Shown piece by piece: positions 9,515 through 52,114 of a stretch of 64,000 nucleotides of DNA; position 1 is the stretch's first letter; every line of letters begins with the position of its first letter. A program made the position numbers and the translations under genes. The DNA is from a virus. The notes under the pieces are model-generated. The model saw nothing but the letters and a program-made list of their open reading frames with translations, ran no database searches and was not told where the DNA came from. The DNA lies in IMG/VR virus record IMGVR_UViG_3300045120_000483, positions 1 through 64,000 of that record; one strand, given 5' to 3'.

Positions 9515-10186
9515 ATGAAACTTTTAACAGAACTTACCCATGAAGTTGAATACCTGAAAGAAGGTAAGGAAGGCTCCCCCCAAAAGCTTTATATCCGGGG
9601 ACCTTTTGCAGAAGCTGAAGTCGGTAACCGCAACAAGCGTTGGTATCCTCTTCCTATTCTGGAACGGGAATTTAATCGTTATCAGACCGAAAACATCAGT
9701 AAAAACAACGCTTTGGGCGAACTGAATCATCCGGCCGGTCCCAATATCAACCTGGATAGGGTTGCCATCAAGATCACTGAGGCCAAACGGGATGGTAACA
9801 AGTTCATTGGCAAGGCCTTAGTCACTGAAACCCCCATGGGGGATATCGTGAAAGGTTTGATTAACTCCGGTGTTCAGTTGGGGGTTTCTACCCGGGCCCT
9901 GGGTTCTTTAAAATACAATTCCCGGACTGAACTGAATGAGGTCCAGGACGATCTTAAACTTCTGGCCGTTGATGTCGTCTCCGATCCCTCCTGCCCATCA
10001 GCTTATGTGAGCGGGCTCCATGAAGGGGCTGAATGGATTTTCAATCCTGCCCTGGGGTCCTGGGTCATTAATACAGTCGAAACCCACAAAAAGGTCATAA
10101 AAGAGGTTTCCCGAAAGAAAATTACCCAGATTCAGACCCGATTATTTGAAGAATTCCTCTCCTCTCTCAAAAATCCTAAATCATAA
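9515..10186 (+). CDS. 21: Prohead core protease gp21
   Basis: 223 residues, the usual size. It matures the prohead by cutting scaffold, capsid and internal proteins after L/I-x-E. The sequence shows the herpesvirus-like serine protease layout of this family: GNRNKRWYP near residues 37-45, GELNHP with the probable catalytic His72, and GVSTRALGS with the probable catalytic Ser125. It is followed directly by scaffold and capsid genes, as in T4. The C-terminal ~60 residues are likely removed by self-cleavage in the family, but I cannot place the site. Confidence 0.9.
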   Translation: MKLLTELTHEVEYLKEGKEGSPQKLYIRGPFAEAEVGNRNKRWYPLPILEREFNRYQTENISKNNALGELNHPAGPNINLDRVAIKITEAKRDGNKFIGKALVTETPMGDIVKGLINSGVQLGVSTRALGSLKYNSRTELNEVQDDLKLLAVDVVSDPSCPSAYVSGLHEGAEWIFNPALGSWVINTVETHKKVIKEVSRKKITQIQTRLFEEFLSSLKNPKS

Positions 10187-10219: not shown

Positions 10220-11368
10220 ATGGATAAAGAACTAATCAAGAAATTCGACAAGTTCATTGCTGAAAACGAACACGATTCCCTGGAAAACGCCGTTTCAGCG
10301 TTCGTTCAGACAGAGAAGTTGGATGAAACTGTCAAAGACGCTTTGATCGATCATATCAACACTTCCCTTGAAGAGGATGAAGTTGATGAATCAGCAGGCT
10401 CTGAGACCCTTCATGCCGGTTCGAAAGCCTATGACGATCCCAAGACCAAATTTGAGGTCATTACCGCCGCTATCGGGGCCATGGCCGCCGCAAAAGGCGA
10501 AGATTTGCCATTTTGGCAGGAAGCCCTAAAGCAGTCCATGGAAAACGGTAAAGGTCAGGGTATTCCGGACGGAGCAGCAGAGAAGAATAAGGCTACTATC
10601 AAGCCTCATGCTTCCGCCGCCGTAAAGGAAGCCACAAAGGAAGACCTGGGTAAGATTCTAGCGGAAGCAGAAGGTTTGACCCCCGAATTCAAGGCCAGGG
10701 CATCCACGCTCTTTGAAGCGGCTCTGGAAGCCCGAATTGTCCTGGAATCCACCCGTCTGGAAAGCGAATTTATTCAAAAGCTGGAAGAGGCCTCAGAGGG
10801 TATCCGGGCTGAATTGGTAGAAGGTCTGGATAAGTATCTGGATTGGGCCAAGGACGAATGGATGAAGGAAAATGAAGTCGCCATTCAATCTTCCCTAAAG
10901 TCTGAAATTGCGGAAGACGTAATCAACGGCCTTCGGGACCTTTTGACTGAAAATAACATTCATTTGAATGAGGAAGAAGTCGAAGTAGTCGATGCCATGG
11001 CGGCGAAGATCGATGAACTAGAATCCGCCCTGAATGATGCTATTTCTGCCAATGCAGAACTTCAAGAAGCTGTTGAAAACACTAAGAAAACTGAAGTAGT
11101 TAAGAAATTATCAGAGGGTTTAACCCAAATTGAAGCCGAAAAGCTTCAGACCCTTTCCGAAAACGTGGATTATGAAACTCTGGAAGACTTTTCTACCAAG
11201 GTTAAGACAATCAAGGAATCTCAGTTTGTGAAGGCCGCCAAGACTTCAAAGGTCGGGGAAGCTCTAGAACAGATTGACGAAGAGCGTCTTCCAACCAATC
11301 CAGAGACCTTTGTATCACCAGAAATGAAAGCTTACACACAAGCGATCAGTCGCAACATTGTAAAGTAA
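10220..11368 (+). CDS. 22: Prohead scaffold core protein gp22
   Basis: 382 residues, highly acidic and almost entirely helical with long coiled-coil-like Glu/Leu stretches, as expected for the major scaffold that fills the prohead and is destroyed by gp21. The N-terminal half carries an Ala-rich segment (AIGAMAAAKGEDLP), the middle is Glu-rich, and the C-terminus ends AISRNIVK. The order 21-22-23 is the T4 order. Scaffold proteins diverge fast, so the call depends on position, length and composition. Confidence 0.85.
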   Translation: MDKELIKKFDKFIAENEHDSLENAVSAFVQTEKLDETVKDALIDHINTSLEEDEVDESAGSETLHAGSKAYDDPKTKFEVITAAIGAMAAAKGEDLPFWQEALKQSMENGKGQGIPDGAAEKNKATIKPHASAAVKEATKEDLGKILAEAEGLTPEFKARASTLFEAALEARIVLESTRLESEFIQKLEEASEGIRAELVEGLDKYLDWAKDEWMKENEVAIQSSLKSEIAEDVINGLRDLLTENNIHLNEEEVEVVDAMAAKIDELESALNDAISANAELQEAVENTKKTEVVKKLSEGLTQIEAEKLQTLSENVDYETLEDFSTKVKTIKESQFVKAAKTSKVGEALEQIDEERLPTNPETFVSPEMKAYTQAISRNIVK

Positions 11369-11424: not shown

Positions 11425-12837
11425 ATGACGAACAAGAAATATACTAATGACGAATTGATCACAAAGTGGATGCCGGTTCTAGAACATGCCGACCTTCCAC
11501 CGATTAAAGATTATCATCGTCGGGTGATTACAGCGACGTTGTTGGAAAACACCAGAGATGCCCTGGAAGTTACCAATCGCTATCAGCGTTTGACCCTTTT
11601 GGGAGAAGCGGCTCCGACCAACTCCATGGGAGCATCCTCTTCAACAGCCGGGGACGGTTCTCTTGATACGTTTGATCCGATCCTGATCTCCCTAATCCGA
11701 AGAGCCATGCCGAACCTTGTGGCTTACGATATCTGCGGCGTTCAGCAAATGAACGGTCCCACCGGACTAATCTTTGCTCTCCGCACCCGTTATGCAACTC
11801 AGTCTGGAGCGGAAGCTTATTATCTGGAAGCTAATTCCGGTCACTCCGCCAGAGGGGGTGCCAACGCCACCGCTGTGCAGGCTGGTTATTCCGCAGCTAA
11901 CGTTGTGGGTGGTCAGGCCGTAAACATCAATGCCAACTCCACGATTACAGGTATTCCGGGCGTTTCCAACAACGTCGGCGGAAACACCTATAACTTTGCG
12001 GGTGGTATGAGCCGAACTATTTCTGAAGGTTTGGGTGGTAATACCACTGCGATCTTCCCAGAAATGGCATTCTCCATTGAGAAGGTTTCCGTCACTGCGA
12101 TGGAAAGAGCTTTGAAGGCCGAATGGTCCATGGAAATGGCTCAGGACCTTAAGGCAATTCATGGTCTTGATGCCGAATCCCTTCTGTCCAATCTTCTTCA
12201 GACAGAATTGCTTGCGGAAATCAACAGAGAAGTTGTTCGAACCGTTAACGTAACGGCCGTCTCAGGTTCTCAGGTTGACGTTACCTCCGCCGGTACTTTC
12301 GACCTTGACGTTGATGCCAACGGTCGATGGATGATTGAAAAGTTCAAGGGCTTGCATTTCCAGCTTCAGCGTGAAGCCAACCAGATTGCAAAGGACACCC
12401 GTCGCGGGCGGGGCAACCTGATCATCTGTAGTTCTGACGTAGCTTCGGCTCTTCAGCAGACCGGTCAGTTGGACTACAAGACTGCCCTTACTGGTAACAG
12501 CCTGGAAGTCGATGATACTGGCAATACCTTTGTCGGTGTTTTGAACGGCCAATTTAAAGTTTTCATTGACCCTTACGCGATTGGTGCAAACTATATGACG
12601 GTCGGTTATAAGGGTAAGGACGCAATGGACGCCGGACTATTCTATTGTCCATACGTTCCGCTTCAGTTGTTGAAGGGTCAGAACCCCGATACGTTCCAAC
12701 CCAAACTGGGCTTTAAGACAAGATACGGTATGGTAGCGAATCCATTCTCTGATGGTTCAACTGCGGCCGGTACCGGTGCTCTTACTCAGGACTCTAACGT
12801 TTATTATCGGAGAACCATTGTAACACACATCGGCTAA
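11425..12837 (+). CDS. 23: Major capsid protein gp23
   Basis: 470 residues. The N-terminal ~61 residues form a helical delta domain ending LTLLGE/AAP, which fits the gp21 rule and sits where T4 gp23 is cut after Glu65. Family landmarks include LISLIRRAMPNLVAYDICG and MNGPTGLIFALR near residues 90-120 and RGRGNLIICSSDVASAL in the middle. The gene ends at a strong terminator, closing the head operon, and begins after a perfect late promoter box. Confidence 0.95.
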   Translation: MTNKKYTNDELITKWMPVLEHADLPPIKDYHRRVITATLLENTRDALEVTNRYQRLTLLGEAAPTNSMGASSSTAGDGSLDTFDPILISLIRRAMPNLVAYDICGVQQMNGPTGLIFALRTRYATQSGAEAYYLEANSGHSARGGANATAVQAGYSAANVVGGQAVNINANSTITGIPGVSNNVGGNTYNFAGGMSRTISEGLGGNTTAIFPEMAFSIEKVSVTAMERALKAEWSMEMAQDLKAIHGLDAESLLSNLLQTELLAEINREVVRTVNVTAVSGSQVDVTSAGTFDLDVDANGRWMIEKFKGLHFQLQREANQIAKDTRRGRGNLIICSSDVASALQQTGQLDYKTALTGNSLEVDDTGNTFVGVLNGQFKVFIDPYAIGANYMTVGYKGKDAMDAGLFYCPYVPLQLLKGQNPDTFQPKLGFKTRYGMVANPFSDGSTAAGTGALTQDSNVYYRRTIVTHIG

Positions 12838-44657: not shown

Positions 44658-46403
44658 TTAAACTCCTGATTTCTTTTGTGTATTTATCATTTTGGATTCT
44701 ACATTTAGGGTACTAGCCGACTTCCCCGTCTTATGGACATGGGCAATGGCATCATCCTGATTCTTAAAGACTTTGACCGGTCCCCCTCCGCCCGGAACGG
44801 CATGATACTTACCCTTCCGAAGATGAACATGACCAATCAGAAGACGACCCTTTCGGATACCTAGCTCATTGAGAGTTTCTTCCTTAGTCAGAAGGGGATG
44901 ATGAAGACCATAGGTTCCATCGCGGCCTTTGGTAAGCTTTCCCCCTGATACCGGTTTGGGGCGGGCTCTTTTGACAATCGGCCCATGACCTTTCAACTTA
45001 TCCCGGGCATCCTTATAGGTCTTGTACTGTTGGGCGTGATCTTTCATCTCCGCTTCAGCATCTCTTTTTTCCTTGGCGGCGTCCGCATAACGACCCAGAT
45101 GATAGGCCCTCTGAGCCTGATTATGATGATAATCAGCAACTTTCTTTAGCTTATGATATTCATTTCCAGCCCTTCCGGTTGCCGCCCGGGCCTTATCACT
45201 AGCAGCTTCATACTTGTCTTCATGATGATTTTCGATATCACTTAATCGGCCCTTGCCGGTTAACTCCGAAAGGACATCCTCCTTCACATACTTCATTGCT
45301 TTTTCGTCCCATCTCTTACCCGGGAGTTTAGGCATAGCAAACGGGGGCTTGTCTTCTTTCTTATCATCTAACCGTTGGTTTTTGAAAGCATTATGAGCGG
45401 GCGTTACCTTCAGAAATAATCTCCGACCTTCTTCTAGCTCTTCCTTATTCAACCTCATGACATTCTGAGAATTCTGCTTCTGATGAGCCATCAACTTCAT
45501 CAGTTTCTTACTGATAACCGGAGGCTTCTTTGGGGTGATCCAGGAAGGCTTCTTCAGAAGACTTTCATCCACTGCTTCATCAAAATATCTTTTCTCCAGG
45601 TACTTCTTAATCACCGGTAGATGTTCCTTTAGTTTTTTAACTTCATGGTCGGGTGCTTTGTGAATATAATTGGCAAGATGTTTTTGAGCAAAAGTATGGT
45701 GTAAGGATGCAGCTTCCAAAGCCGCCTTATGCTCTGACTCCTTTTTCTGACGGGCCCTATCACTCATTTTTTTAGTATTAAGTTCATGGTGAATATACTT
45801 GGCAAGACCATGCATCTCTTCGGATTGGGTGTTATGTTTCTCAAATTCTTTGACATGTTCATCGGACGTATAGCTACCCATCTTCTTGGAGTTTAGAGCG
45901 GACTCCGAAAGCCGGTAGTGTTCCATGACCCGCTCAACGACGGTTTTCTTTTTGTCAAGAAGGACTTCCGAATCCTTTGCGGTCGGGTCAAGGATCACCG
46001 GGGTCTTACCTCCCAACTTAACCTTATCATCCTTTTTGGCTTCTTCTTCTTTCATCGTATTCTTTGTCATCTTTCGTAAGGCTAAGTTCATGGAATTCTT
46101 TCGTTTATTTAGCTTTTGGGCGGCATATTCCGGGTTGTCCTTCAGGTTCTTATTCCGCAGACCGGCATGAACGATATAGGGACCCAACCGCTGATTTGAC
46201 ATTTCATTGATATTTTCGGCTGTTTTATGAGTTTTCACCAACCATTCAACGGCATCTTTTTTGGATGGATGATCCCTTTTTAAATTCCAATGAATAGACC
46301 GGGCATCCCAACCTTTTTTTCTAGGTTCAAAAATATTTCCTATATGCTTTCCATTGTATCTGACATTATGGACCGACCCGTCTTGTACTATCTTTACACT
46401 CAT
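44658..46403 (-). CDS. Large modular capsid-internal protein, hypothetical
   Basis: 581 residues, extremely Lys/His/Glu-rich. It seems to be a chain of units separated by candidate gp21 sites: NINE/M near residue 68, LSE/S near 166, LEE/G near 336, LSE/L and LNE/L later on. One unit begins LFLKVTPAHNAF, another RKGRLLIGHVHLRKGKYHA, and the middle has long helical His/Ala-rich stretches. Several unit types resemble those of the 316-2775 genes. It is likely packaged in the capsid and perhaps cut there. Start overlaps the upstream stop (ATGA). Confidence 0.5.
   Translation of the reverse strand: MSVKIVQDGSVHNVRYNGKHIGNIFEPRKKGWDARSIHWNLKRDHPSKKDAVEWLVKTHKTAENINEMSNQRLGPYIVHAGLRNKNLKDNPEYAAQKLNKRKNSMNLALRKMTKNTMKEEEAKKDDKVKLGGKTPVILDPTAKDSEVLLDKKKTVVERVMEHYRLSESALNSKKMGSYTSDEHVKEFEKHNTQSEEMHGLAKYIHHELNTKKMSDRARQKKESEHKAALEAASLHHTFAQKHLANYIHKAPDHEVKKLKEHLPVIKKYLEKRYFDEAVDESLLKKPSWITPKKPPVISKKLMKLMAHQKQNSQNVMRLNKEELEEGRRLFLKVTPAHNAFKNQRLDDKKEDKPPFAMPKLPGKRWDEKAMKYVKEDVLSELTGKGRLSDIENHHEDKYEAASDKARAATGRAGNEYHKLKKVADYHHNQAQRAYHLGRYADAAKEKRDAEAEMKDHAQQYKTYKDARDKLKGHGPIVKRARPKPVSGGKLTKGRDGTYGLHHPLLTKEETLNELGIRKGRLLIGHVHLRKGKYHAVPGGGGPVKVFKNQDDAIAHVHKTGKSASTLNVESKMINTQKKSGV
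44681..44688 (-). promoter_or_regulatory. Late promoter box before 43798-44652
   Basis: GATAAATA on the minus strand, 28 nt before the start, inside the 3' end of the large modular protein gene. Confidence 0.55.
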
Positions 46404-48394: not shown

Positions 48395-50227
48395 TTACTT
48401 CTTTCCTTTGGCCTGTTTCAGAGCAGTTCGCATTGTGACAAACATCCTCTTGGCCTTATTGTCATCTAGGTTAGCCGGGGCATTCTTTCGGAAAGCTGGG
48501 AAGTCATTAGCCGCTACGGCCCGACGCTGTTTACTGGCGGACACTCCCCCAATTTCCTTGCTAGCCGGGTCTCTGTCCCCTCCGGAGACAATATTAATCT
48601 TTGAAAAATGGAACAATTTACCGGGCTCCGGTCCATTATATTTCGCCACAAGCTTCTTATAGTCCGCAACCCGGTCGGAACCCGCCATAATCGTCAAATG
48701 TTTAACCCCCGAATGATGCATATGCTTCAACTGGGCGACAAGAGTGGCTTTATCGGGACCTGCGACCGCAACATCAGCCTTCGGAAACATACTTTTAAGC
48801 CATTTCAGTTTATCGGCCGGGGACAAGGGGTTTTTCTTATCTCCCTGAGAGCCTGAGGCGACCACTGATAACTTTCCGCCGGTTTTGGTAGCTATCCTAC
48901 CCCCCTGATCAATTAATTGCCTGTGGCCCTCTGTGGGCGGATTAAAACGGCCCCAAACCAGGACGGTCGGGTTATCGGATGGATTGACCTTCGCATTCCA
49001 GTCAAAATTAGCCGCAGAGAAATGATTTCGATCCACCAGCTTGACGGGCTCATGATTTAGAGAAGCAACAAACCCCTCTGGTTTTGACTTGTTTCCTAGG
49101 ATAGTCTCATCGTAAGGAGACTTGTGAGATAAAGTATCCACAAGCACGTTTTTAGCATTTTGAAGGTGTTTATGAGCCATAAACAGAGATTTGAAAGTAT
49201 CTTCATTCCCCAAAACATTCTTAATCTCCGTATTCAAGTTAGATTTCAAGTTAGATTTACCTGAATCGGTCTTCAGGTCCTCCATTTTACTATTCATTTG
49301 CTTTCGAAGGAAGCTGATATAGCCTGAAACTGTATTTTCTTTCCGATTCTTTACCGCATCATTGATATAGGCCAGAAGGGTCTTTTCATGGTTCCGAACC
49401 GGCTCATGATCCGGAATTTTAGAAAAGACCTTTCGGGCCTTGGTCAGAGCATCACTGAACTTCTTCTGATCCCCGGGCGGATAGTAAAAATTCCCCCCCA
49501 CCTTGGTATTGAACAAATGGACATCTGGAGAATCCTTAAAAGCCCCATGATCAAATTTATATTTGGCTTTTAGAGTTCCATCCATTTCGGGTTCATAAGT
49601 GGTATGGGGGGCAATCCCGATCTTCGAATCAGCTATTTTCCTGCCCTCCGCTGAGCCCTTCGGAACATGATAGGAAAGGGTATTGGGAGAGAATGAATAA
49701 TGGGAATTGTTAGCAACACCAACATCCTCCGCCGTGTACATCAGATCACCCTGATAAACGCCTTCCTTGGGGGTTATCCCCTTCAGGTGCTTCAGAGCAT
49801 TCTTGAGCTTCTTAACCAGACCCGGGCTCTTTCCATGATTGGCCTCAATATCCTTATCCGAAAAGTTGATTTTTGGGCTCTTGTTGAAAAAAGCCTTGGT
49901 GCCTACAAAGAACTTTTTAGTTTCGGGGTGATGTCCCCAGACCAAAGAAGGGCTTCCGTCCATCTTTGTCGTCAAATTAAACTTATCGTTCTTCTTGCCG
50001 GTCAGAAAATTATGAGTATGGGTCAGAAATTCTGAAGCCTTACTCAGACCATCGGGGTGACGGATTAGCAGGTCTTCAGCATGATCTAAGTGCTGGTTTT
50101 TGGAAGATTTCTTCTCTTCCCTGGCTCCTTCGGTGAGAAGTTCGGCATCCTCAAAGATAGCCGAAAAATCCGGATCGACTAGAACGCCCTCCGGGAATAA
50201 ATGGGTGATTTCATGTAATAATTTCAT
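48395..50227 (-). CDS. Late ligase-like / nucleotidyltransferase fusion (DUF6267-like)
   Basis: 610 residues from ATG 50227. The first 33 residues (MKLLHEITHLFPEG...AELLTE/G) look like a capsid-targeting leader ending in a gp21 site. Residues about 45-200 match the phage DUF6267-like domain, with HLDHAEDLLIRH and TTKMDGSPSLVWG, the latter like the KxDG motif of nucleotidyl ligases. The C-terminal ~180 residues have VLVWGRFNPPTEGHRQLID and VSASKQRRAV, the HxGH-type nucleotidyltransferase (NMNAT/cytidylyltransferase) fold. The late box lies 4 nt before the ATG. Probably packaged and injected; substrates unknown. Confidence 0.65.
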   Translation of the reverse strand: MKLLHEITHLFPEGVLVDPDFSAIFEDAELLTEGAREEKKSSKNQHLDHAEDLLIRHPDGLSKASEFLTHTHNFLTGKKNDKFNLTTKMDGSPSLVWGHHPETKKFFVGTKAFFNKSPKINFSDKDIEANHGKSPGLVKKLKNALKHLKGITPKEGVYQGDLMYTAEDVGVANNSHYSFSPNTLSYHVPKGSAEGRKIADSKIGIAPHTTYEPEMDGTLKAKYKFDHGAFKDSPDVHLFNTKVGGNFYYPPGDQKKFSDALTKARKVFSKIPDHEPVRNHEKTLLAYINDAVKNRKENTVSGYISFLRKQMNSKMEDLKTDSGKSNLKSNLNTEIKNVLGNEDTFKSLFMAHKHLQNAKNVLVDTLSHKSPYDETILGNKSKPEGFVASLNHEPVKLVDRNHFSAANFDWNAKVNPSDNPTVLVWGRFNPPTEGHRQLIDQGGRIATKTGGKLSVVASGSQGDKKNPLSPADKLKWLKSMFPKADVAVAGPDKATLVAQLKHMHHSGVKHLTIMAGSDRVADYKKLVAKYNGPEPGKLFHFSKINIVSGGDRDPASKEIGGVSASKQRRAVAANDFPAFRKNAPANLDDNKAKRMFVTMRTALKQAKGKK

Positions 50228-50231
50228 CAAA

Positions 50232-50239
50232 TATTTATC
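50232..50239 (-). promoter_or_regulatory. Late promoter box, leaderless
   Basis: GATAAATA ends 4 nt before the ATG, directly after the helicase stop, and no ribosome site is visible. Confidence 0.55.
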
Positions 50240-51601
50240 TCATTTGATCCCGGCAAATAACCCTTTCAGGACTTCCTTCCCGGCATCCATTACCGGGACA
50301 CTATCCTTTTCGGGTTTAATGTCGGCAGAAACATCAAAAAGTCGCATCTTATCCAGGTCCAAACCCAGATGAAACCTCAAATAGTAGTCCTTACGATTGT
50401 AGCGATTCTTAATTTGTTTGATAAAAACCTGTTTCAGAGCATCAAGCTCTTCCGTTCGAACAATTGCCAGAATAATATCAGCGGCGGCGGCAAGACCAAA
50501 GGATTCAGAGATATGATGCATCTCCGGTTCAGAACTCTTAAACCCCTCCCTATTGAACTGAGTGGCAGAAACAATGGGAACGTTAAACTCCTTGGCCAAC
50601 CCCCTGATCTCTTGAGCAATGGCCTGAACATATTCATAGAGACCGACGTTACCAGAAAGTTTAATTCGGGAGGACTTGCAGATATTTAGATAGTCGATGT
50701 AGATGATATCCGGAACAAACTTCTTCTTCAACTTCAATTCATTGAGAAGATGACGAAAATTATCGGCCCCCGCCGTTGCTTCATTGTACTCCTGAATAAT
50801 CAGCTTACCGGGAGTCTTGTCCCACACCTTCTTGATCTTATTATGAAAAGCCGCCTTATCCAGCTTAACAAGATCATTCAGGGCAACATCCATCAGATTG
50901 GCATCGATACGCTCCGCAATAAGCTGTTCGGCCATCTCCATAGTAATGTAGAGGACATTAAATCCCCTGACCAAATTAGCAGCCGCCATATGACACATGA
51001 ACAGCGACTTACCGAAACCAACACCCCCCATAAGAATATTAAGGGTCTTTCGAATCAGACCCCCCTTGGTAATCTTGTTCATAATCTCTAAATCAAAGGG
51101 GATACGAACATGCTTTTCATGAAAAAATGAGTGTCGATCTTCCCAATCTTCAAAATAGTCATGACCAATATGAGAATCAAAAGAAACAGCTAGAGCATCC
51201 GACAAGATTTGGGGGATAGCTCCCCGCCCCAGCGTGTTACCCTTTTTGTTCTCCATAATCGACATGGCCTTGTACAGACCATTCTCAATCGCCTTATCCT
51301 GACAGAACTTCTCTGAGGCATTGACCAACCAATCCAACTCAAGCTTCTTACCGTCATAGGTGTCAACAATAACCTGACAACCCTTGGCGGTTTCTTCCGT
51401 CAGGTCCCGTCGATTATCAATTTCAATCTTGACGGCCTGAAGCTCCGGAGACTTATTATACTTATTGACATAATCCCGGATGACCTCAAAGGCTATCCGT
51501 TCGGAACGATCATGAAAATATTCCGGTTGAATATGAGGAAGAACTTTTCGGGAGAAATCTTCATTCGAAATCAGATTGTGAAGTATAGTTTGTTCGATCA
51601 A
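50240..51601 (-). CDS. 41: Replicative DNA helicase gp41
   Basis: 453 residues, DnaB-type. Walker A GGVGFGKSL (about residues 192-200), Walker B IIYIDYLNIC and the motif IVSATQFNREG, then KNRYNRKDYYLRF near the C-terminus, all expected. It unwinds the fork with the gp61 primase. The start is TTG at 51601, overlapping the upstream stop (TTGA). It is in one unit with the macro domain and UvsX genes. Confidence 0.9.
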   Translation of the reverse strand: MIEQTILHNLISNEDFSRKVLPHIQPEYFHDRSERIAFEVIRDYVNKYNKSPELQAVKIEIDNRRDLTEETAKGCQVIVDTYDGKKLELDWLVNASEKFCQDKAIENGLYKAMSIMENKKGNTLGRGAIPQILSDALAVSFDSHIGHDYFEDWEDRHSFFHEKHVRIPFDLEIMNKITKGGLIRKTLNILMGGVGFGKSLFMCHMAAANLVRGFNVLYITMEMAEQLIAERIDANLMDVALNDLVKLDKAAFHNKIKKVWDKTPGKLIIQEYNEATAGADNFRHLLNELKLKKKFVPDIIYIDYLNICKSSRIKLSGNVGLYEYVQAIAQEIRGLAKEFNVPIVSATQFNREGFKSSEPEMHHISESFGLAAAADIILAIVRTEELDALKQVFIKQIKNRYNRKDYYLRFHLGLDLDKMRLFDVSADIKPEKDSVPVMDAGKEVLKGLFAGIK

Positions 51602-52095
51602 TTTTGGGGAATTTCCTCTCTAGAAAGAACATAAACAACCGGTTCGGCATGAAACATCGACTCCTGAATGATCTCTGAAATGATCTTCCAATCGCCGCCC
51701 CCTAGACCGGCCCCGATCTTTGGCATTGCCACGGCCGTAAAAGCGGGACCTCCAAAGTTTCCATCATAACAGAACGTGTTCAAACGCCTCATACATTCCC
51801 GAATGGCATTGTAATCAACATACTGTTTGTTTTGACGACCATAGAATTCTTGTGTGATGCAGTTCGCAATTGCCTTACCGCCCGAATAAGCAAAGATGAT
51901 ATCCCCCGGAACGAAAGGAGTTGTATCTTTAAATTCCATTATTTTTTGGGCGTAAGTTCTATAGGCAGATGGAAAAGCTTGTTTGATAGCTAAGGCGACT
52001 CCGGCCCCCATCACACCTTGAGCATTACAGCCATGAGCTATTATCGGCTCCGGAGCTTTTGTCAAATTCCCCACAACATATCGAATATTTGTCAT
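51598..52095 (-). CDS. Macro domain protein
   Basis: 165 residues from MTNIRYVVGNL; the ATG follows GGAGAAG and the longer frame starts with TTG. PIIAHGCNAQGVMGAGVALAIKQAFPSAY is the ADP-ribose-binding pattern, and GDIIFAY and AVAMPKIGAGLGGGDW complete it, close to Poa1p-type ADP-ribose-1''-phosphate phosphatases. It may remove ADP-ribose from nucleic acid or protein, or act on tRNA-splicing by-products. It has its own promoter within the replication region. Confidence 0.8.
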   Translation of the reverse strand: MTNIRYVVGNLTKAPEPIIAHGCNAQGVMGAGVALAIKQAFPSAYRTYAQKIMEFKDTTPFVPGDIIFAYSGGKAIANCITQEFYGRQNKQYVDYNAIRECMRRLNTFCYDGNFGGPAFTAVAMPKIGAGLGGGDWKIISEIIQESMFHAEPVVYVLSREEIPQN

Positions 52096-52114
52096 ACACT
52101 TCTCCAAAACGACA

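What the first reader, a model, noticed from the sequence alone, without database searches (positions are those of the whole stretch)
48395..50227. A late, apparently packaged ligase-like plus nucleotidyltransferase fusion
The N-terminus carries a 33-residue leader ending LLTE/G, a late box lies directly before the start, a KMDG motif resembles the lysine motif of nucleotidyl ligases, and the C-terminal half has an NPPTEGH nucleotidyltransferase fold. A leader with a gp21 site implies that the enzyme is put into the capsid and injected with the DNA. An injected enzyme of this kind could repair genome ends, charge a cofactor or rebuild NAD at the moment of infection.
Basis: partly seen in the sequence, partly recalled or inferred. 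Interest (0 to 1): 0.7.

Follow-up and report, generated by a model that had tools for sequence, protein, structure and literature searches.

The report
Packaged two-domain phage nucleotidyltransferase
A T4-like phage from a metagenome encodes a two-part, cysteine-free enzyme whose start looks like a 'load me into the head' tag, so it is probably carried inside the virus particle and injected to repair RNA ends or rebuild NAD at the start of infection; the substrate is still unknown.

Summary
ORF 48398-50227(-), 610 aa, is DUF6267 (res. 44-409) plus a HIGH-type nucleotidyltransferase (res. 418-604). The LLTE/G site alone is weak evidence (LxE is common). But Glu33 is invariant in 54/54 aligned relatives, and 55/63 distinct relatives begin with a ~10-residue leader like the T4 capsid-targeting sequence (MKTYQEFIAE/A of ipII and ipIII). 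Homologous cytidylyltransferases with this leader were found by mass spectrometry in four cyanophage virions; S-PM2's fused homologue lacks the leader and was not found. In S-CREM2 all four proteins with a strict leader match are in the virion (p=0.003). Leader-bearing DUF6267 domains contain no cysteine (52/52); T4 internal proteins contain none either. The ligase hint gains support: K88xDG, D161, EG384-385 and K396 are invariant, and the model's top PDB neighbours are T4 RNA ligase 2, though no single match is significant and profile comparison is negative. Related phages add a leader-bearing HAD phosphatase. Best reading: a T4-internal-protein-type packaged enzyme, injected and catalytically live, probably for RNA-end repair and/or NAD recovery. 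Packaging is well supported by homologues, untested in this phage; the substrate is unproven.

The parts
48395..50227 (-). whole gene, 610 aa plus stop (P0001): leader, DUF6267, HIGH-type nucleotidyltransferase
50129..50227 (-). predicted capsid-targeting leader, residues 1-33, acidic (pI 4.2), cut after E33 (LLTE/GA)
   Evidence: E33 invariant in 54/54; disordered in the model, residues 1-26 and 36-44 with pLDDT below 50; pI
50189..50191 (-). E13, possible alternative cut FPE/G (LQE/G at residue 12 in L002)
49001..50098 (-). DUF6267 domain, residues 44-409
   Evidence: PF19782 E=2e-86; model of residues 34-412 with pLDDT 93.2, pTM 0.90
49955..49966 (-). K88-M-D-G91, candidate motif I (nucleotidyl-lysine)
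   Evidence: K88, D90, G91 in 54/54
49745..49753 (-). Q159-G-D161, candidate motif III
   Evidence: Q159 and D161 in 54/54
49127..49477 (-). helical insertion, residues 251-367, between candidate motifs III and IV
   Evidence: model
49073..49078 (-). E384-G385, candidate motif IV
   Evidence: 54/54
49040..49042 (-). K396, candidate motif V lysine
   Evidence: 54/54
48416..48976 (-). HIGH-type nucleotidyltransferase domain, residues 418-604
   Evidence: PF01467 E=0.002, below its cut-off; PHROG 3041 and 395; NadD, FAD synthetase and PPAT fold hits
48923..48934 (-). T432-E-G-H435, HxGH-type motif
   Evidence: G434 and H435 in 26/26 fused rows
48524..48541 (-). S563-A-S-K-Q-R568, ISxTxxR-type motif
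   Evidence: K566 and R568 in 26/26
50232..50239 (-). late-type box GATAAATA, 4 nt before the ATG
   Evidence: enriched upstream of genes, but the spacing here is anomalous
9515..10186 (+). gp21 prohead protease, own leader MKLLTELTHEVEYLKE/G
   Evidence: Peptidase_S77 E=4e-36; PHROG 207
10220..11368 (+). gp22-type scaffold
   Evidence: T4_CASP E=5e-56
11425..12837 (+). gp23 major head protein with LLGE/AAP near residue 61
   Evidence: PHROG 138; sequence

Best explanation
A packaged, injected two-domain nucleotidyltransferase of the T4 internal-protein type. The acidic N-terminal leader puts the precursor into the prohead core; gp21 cuts after Glu33 (or Glu13); the basic, cysteine-free ~64 kDa enzyme stays with the DNA and enters the cell with it. 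In the cell the DUF6267 domain forms a nucleotidyl-lysine at K88 and uses it in a ligase- or guanylyltransferase-type transfer. My first choice is sealing of broken RNA, for example tRNA cut by host defence nucleases, since related phages package a HAD phosphatase (polynucleotide-kinase family) from the same operon. The C-terminal HIGH domain makes a dinucleotide, most likely NAD from NMN, giving back a cofactor. Shown here: leader conservation, intact catalytic motifs, predicted fold, association of the leader with virion presence in homologous phages. Inferred: cleavage and injection in this phage, enzyme activity, substrates.
For: Leader: Glu33 in 54/54 aligned relatives; T4-like leader in 55/63 distinct relatives; T4 ipII and ipIII MKTYQEFIAE/A, ipI longer, MKTFKEFTSTTTPVSTITE/A; a 10-aa T4 leader suffices to load a foreign protein and is cut by gp21 (PMC10229621). 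Virions: homologous cytidylyltransferases detected in S-SM1 (PMC3037559), S-SZBM1 (PMC9146016), S-SCSM1 (PMC9602691) and S-CREM2 (PMC10665884); all four start with such a leader. S-PM2's fused homologue lacks it and its cytidylyltransferase cluster was not detected. S-CREM2: 4/4 strict leader proteins in the virion against 47/213 others, p=0.0028 (loose pattern 5/8, p=0.019). Composition: no Cys in 52/52 leader-bearing DUF6267 domains, 2-9 Cys in five leaderless homologues; T4 internal proteins have none. Catalysis: K88, D90, G91, D161, E384, G385, K396 invariant; G434, H435 and R568 in all fused rows. Fold: T4 RNA ligase 2 is the top PDB neighbour of the N domain, NadD of the C domain. Partner HAD.
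Against: No proteome of this phage. DUF6267 itself is not reported in a virion in the tables I could read: in S-SZBM1 and S-CREM2 it lacks the leader and is not listed. The target's own leader is atypical (33 residues, does not match the short pattern). Ligase fold matches are individually not significant (best E=0.1, probability at most 0.44, low TM-scores); profile comparison with T4 RNA ligase 2 negative. No HAD homologue found in this contig. Cysteine and leader counts are not corrected for shared ancestry; the family-level cysteine test was not significant (p=0.45, n=4).
Confidence: 0.62

Rival explanations
1. NAD-centred enzyme: the C-terminal domain is an NMN adenylyltransferase that restores NAD after host NADase defence or for phage ADP-ribosyltransferases; the N domain prepares or regulates the nucleotide substrate rather than sealing nucleic acid.
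For: C domain fold nearest NadD, FAD synthetase and PPAT; weak NadR, NadD and NMNAT family hits; cyanophage papers name the homologues NMNAT (PMC9602691); NAD synthesis is a known phage counter-defence (PMC7824862); a macro domain lies two genes upstream.
Against: All family hits are far below curated cut-offs, so substrate specificity is unresolved; does not explain the conserved KxDG domain or the HAD partner.
Confidence: 0.27
2. DNA-end or nick repair of the incoming genome by an injected DNA ligase-like enzyme.
For: T4 DNA ligase and bacterial NAD-dependent DNA ligases are among the fold neighbours; an enzyme packed with DNA is placed for this.
Against: RNA ligases rank first; no DNA-binding or OB domain detected; T4-like phages encode separate DNA end protection and ligase (own knowledge; T4 gp2 and gp30).
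Confidence: 0.1
3. Not packaged: an early or middle intracellular enzyme co-transcribed with gp41; the LLTE/G match is chance.
For: Gene order gp43-uvsX-gp41-DUF6267 is conserved; leaderless cyanophage DUF6267 proteins are not in virion tables; late-box spacing is odd.
Against: Invariant Glu33 and leader in most relatives, virion detection of homologues, absence of cysteine.
Confidence: 0.13
4. Structural or DNA-condensing internal protein whose enzyme domains are relics.
For: Basic (pI about 9.7), homologues found in virions of relatives.
Against: Catalytic residues of both domains are invariant across divergent sequences.
Confidence: 0.05

Closest known systems
T4 internal proteins ipI, ipII, ipIII and Alt (capsid-targeting leader, gp21-cleaved, injected)
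   Same: N-terminal leader ending in (L/I)xE/(A/G), gp21/gp22/gp23 in the same genome, basic, no cysteine (as ipI-III), counter-host role likely
   Different: sequence unrelated after the leader; carries two nucleotidyltransferase domains; the target's leader is 33 residues, longer than those of ipII, ipIII and ipI
Cyanophage DUF6267 (T4-GC 71) and cytitidyltransferase (T4-GC 190)
   Same: homologous domains in the same order and the same genomic place after uvsX and gp41
   Different: mostly two genes; in the cyanophages checked only the cytidylyltransferase bears the leader; here one fused protein with one leader
T4 RNA ligase 2 (Rnl2) and the covalent nucleotidyltransferase superfamily
   Same: KxDG, acidic motif III, EG motif IV and Lys motif V in order; best fold neighbours
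   Different: about 117-residue helical insertion before motif IV, QGD instead of GE in motif III, single Lys in motif V, no significant sequence or profile match
NMN/NaMN adenylyltransferases (NadD, NadM, NadR)
   Same: HxGH and ISxTxxR-type motifs, fold
   Different: below all family cut-offs; substrate residues not established

Membership tests
T4-type capsid-targeted internal protein | N-terminal leader with gp21 site (L/I)xE/(A/G) | tested here: met
   LLTE/G at 33, Glu invariant in 54/54
T4-type capsid-targeted internal protein | phage encodes gp21 protease and gp22 core, gp23 with the same kind of site | tested here: met
T4-type capsid-targeted internal protein | short leader of about 10 aa (typical, not universal: ipI has 19) | tested here: inconclusive
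   33 residues in the target, with an alternative site at 13; relatives do have 10
T4-type capsid-targeted internal protein | found cleaved inside virions | not testable with these tools
   only homologues in cyanophage virions, cleavage not reported
T4-type capsid-targeted internal protein | late expression | tested here: inconclusive
   enriched late-type box but 4 nt from the ATG
DUF6267 (PF19782) | profile match above cut-off | tested here: met
   291 bits against cut-off 27
covalent nucleotidyltransferase (ligase/capping) superfamily | motifs I, III, IV, V in order and conserved | tested here: met
   K88xDG, QGD161, EG384-385, K396 all 54/54
covalent nucleotidyltransferase (ligase/capping) superfamily | ligase-type catalytic fold | tested here: inconclusive
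   16 of the 50 best PDB neighbours are ligases or capping enzymes, T4 Rnl2 first, but E at least 0.1 and TM-score low
covalent nucleotidyltransferase (ligase/capping) superfamily | profile-level homology to a known member | tested here: not met
   hhalign with the Rnl2 family: probability 0.1%
covalent nucleotidyltransferase (ligase/capping) superfamily | forms nucleotidyl-lysine | not testable with these tools
   needs an assay
HIGH-type nucleotidyltransferase | HxGH and (I/V)SxTxxR-type motifs with the Rossmann-like fold | tested here: met
NMN adenylyltransferase | curated family score | tested here: not met
   17.4 bits against 341 for NadR; below all cut-offs

The most novel reading that the evidence does not exclude
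Many T4-like phages of marine and other environments load a cysteine-free enzyme kit into the head through T4-type capsid-targeting leaders: a KxDG ligase-type transferase (DUF6267), a HAD phosphatase, a HIGH nucleotidyltransferase and, in this phage, a SAM lyase. These are injected so that counter-defence (RNA repair, NAD recovery, SAM removal) acts before any phage gene is expressed; the leader together with absence of cysteine predicts the whole cargo from sequence.
Probability: 0.45. Interest if true: 0.8.

Novelty: new variant of a known kind. Interest (0 to 1): 0.64.

Why it matters
Cyanophage papers have repeatedly found cytidylyltransferase/NMNAT-like enzymes in virions and could only guess whether they are cargo or contamination. 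A T4-type capsid-targeting leader on exactly those proteins gives a mechanism and a sequence rule that can be tested, and gives DUF6267 a predicted activity. If right, T4-like phages inject repair or cofactor enzymes at time zero, in parallel to T4 Alt and the internal proteins.

Tried and rejected
Sequence search of solved structures: nothing for the protein; the profile's best hits (amyloid-like protein 1, E=0.002) fall on the helical insertion and are taken as coiled-helix noise. Pfam and PHROG scans of 52-54 relatives gave no ligase family. Profile-profile comparison with nine T4 Rnl2-family proteins was negative, with and without the helical insertion. The full-length fold search was swamped by the C domain, so the N domain was modelled alone. 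LxE near the N-terminus as evidence by itself: rejected, too common. Late box as a clean promoter: rejected for spacing. Cellular origin: the seven loci in bacterial/archaeal assemblies are all MAG contigs, most with the same leader, so probably phage. Cysteine test by family: not significant. Papers naming DUF6267: none in the library; 'capsid targeting' with cyanophage: one incidental paper.

Full report
Observation. The gene is at 48395-50227 on the minus strand, 610 aa. It lies just after gp41 (50240-51601) in the order gp43-uvsX-macro-gp41-target, the same place where cyanophages keep DUF6267 and 'cytitidyltransferase' as two neighbouring genes. Pfam gives DUF6267 at residues 44-409 (2e-86) and a sub-threshold CTP_transf_like match; PHROGs give family 455 plus cytidyltransferases. 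Relatives occur in 558 phage records, mostly T4-like cyanophages. A scan of bacterial and archaeal genomes gave seven loci, all metagenome-assembled contigs.

Leader. An LxE site by itself is common: 141 of 342 control ORFs have one within 16 residues. What lifts it above chance is conservation. In 54 aligned proteins (fused and split) Glu33 is invariant, preceded by L/I at 31 in 53 and F/Y/L at 30 in 52. In 55 of 63 distinct environmental relatives the protein begins with a short leader such as MKTFTRFIYE, MRSFITFITE or MLNFYSFLAE, ending in that Glu. T4's ipII and ipIII begin MKTYQEFIAE/A, and ipI has a longer leader ending ITE/A; T4's 10-residue leader is enough to load a foreign protein and is cut by gp21 (PMC10229621). 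The target has a longer version, with possible cuts at 13 and 33. The genome encodes gp21, gp22 and a gp23 with LLGE/A. The leader is unstructured in the model.

Virions. Cytidylyltransferase homologues were detected by mass spectrometry in S-SM1 (PMC3037559), S-SZBM1 (PMC9146016), S-SCSM1 (PMC9602691) and S-CREM2 (PMC10665884). Reading their sequences, all four begin with a leader: MKKFSAFLNE/A, MRFRQFIIE/A, MKSFLQFLKE/A, MKNFSSFLTE/A. The S-PM2 protein is a DUF6267-cytidylyltransferase fusion without a leader (MATQNKHLEHLED), and its cytidylyltransferase cluster is named among proteins not detected in the S-PM2 virion. In S-SZBM1 and S-CREM2 the separate DUF6267 protein has no leader and is not in the virion tables. 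Genome-wide in S-CREM2, four proteins match a strict leader pattern and all four are in the virion, against 47 of 213 others (Fisher p=0.0028; looser pattern 5 of 8, p=0.019). They include the SAM hydrolase and the APH-like kinase that the authors called non-structural. The strict pattern was written after the survey of the IMG/VR loci and before seeing the genome-wide S-CREM2 result, but in the same script as the test, and after part of that genome had been read.

Composition. The target has no cysteine in 610 residues and the predicted mature form has pI 9.75. All 52 DUF6267 domains of the alignment have no cysteine; five leaderless cyanophage homologues have 2 to 9. T4 ipI, ipII and ipIII have none. 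The four strict-leader S-CREM2 virion proteins have 0, 1, 0 and 2 cysteines, while 19 intracellular enzymes average 1.17 per 100 residues. In the IMG/VR loci, leader-bearing ORFs are cysteine-free in 73 of 83 cases against 72 of 209 others. These counts are not corrected for ancestry and the family-level test is not significant (p=0.45).

Enzyme. K88, D90, G91, Q159, D161, E384, G385, K396 and R400 are invariant in 54 of 54. Their order and rough spacing fit motifs I, III, IV and V of covalent nucleotidyltransferases once a 117-residue helical insertion (251-367) is set aside; in T4 Rnl2 the corresponding invariant residues are K35, E99, E204, K225 and K227. The isolated domain models at pLDDT 93, pTM 0.90. 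Its best PDB neighbours are T4 RNA ligase 2 (four of the first five), and 16 of the first 50 are RNA/DNA ligases or capping enzymes, yet no single match is significant (E at least 0.1) and profile comparison with Rnl2 is negative. I therefore say it works like a ligase-type transferase and do not file it as an RNA ligase. The C domain has complete HxGH-type and SxSKxR-type motifs in the fused rows and resembles NadD, FAD synthetase and PPAT in fold, but it is below every curated family cut-off.

Context. In several related phages an operon with overlapping ends holds a HAD phosphatase (weak match to PHROG 415 polynucleotide kinase, 5e-9), DUF6267 and the cytidylyltransferase, each with its own leader (L004, L005, L071, L073). 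This leans toward RNA-end repair; the macro domain near the target and the NMNAT-like C domain lean toward NAD. No HAD homologue was found in this contig.

Late box. ATAAATA is strongly enriched upstream of genes, including gp21-gp23. For the target it is 4 nt before the only usable ATG and no ribosome site is seen, so a leaderless late message or read-through from gp41 must be considered.

Verdict. Packaging and injection: likely (about 0.85 by inference from homologues; not shown in this phage). Both domains active: likely. Substrate: open, RNA-end repair first, NAD second. Known kind (T4 internal protein), new variant by content.

Noticed in passing
contig G000:77321-77971(+), outside the window (L099:13822-14472): A 205-aa protein with a clear T4-type leader (MTRKFSSFLNE/AA), late box and good ribosome site, no cysteine, matching the S-adenosylmethionine lyase family (PF23780, 5e-10): a second predicted packaged enzyme; a SAM hydrolase with such a leader is in S-CREM2 virions.
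   Followed up: partly
window 44658-46403(-): 581-aa protein of unknown family, no cysteine, pI 9.8, 6% His: compositionally like packaged cargo but without an evident leader.
   Followed up: no
loci L004, L005, L007, L008, L020, L023, L028, L037, L055, L065, L071, L073, L095: HAD phosphatase genes (DxDxT), most with capsid-targeting leaders, next to DUF6267; nearly free of cysteine.
   Followed up: partly
loci L032-L053 (e.g. L032:1699-2919): A ~410-aa family (DDKGKLHELLLAKHLH) with leader MLNFKSFLKE and almost no cysteine just upstream of the fused gene; no Pfam or PHROG match.
   Followed up: no
window 51598-52107(-): Macro domain protein (PF01661, 3e-10) between uvsX and gp41.
   Followed up: no
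S-CREM2 gp12 (OR473000 7704-10313): Virion protein annotated as Cas9-like, 869 aa, no cysteine, with LRFASFMAE/AA near its N-terminus: the leader may start further in.
   Followed up: no
S-PM2: AJ630128 against LN828717: DUF6267 and cytidylyltransferase are two ORFs in the first record but one 591-aa fused ORF in the later one, so the first may contain a sequence error or a real mutation.
   Followed up: no
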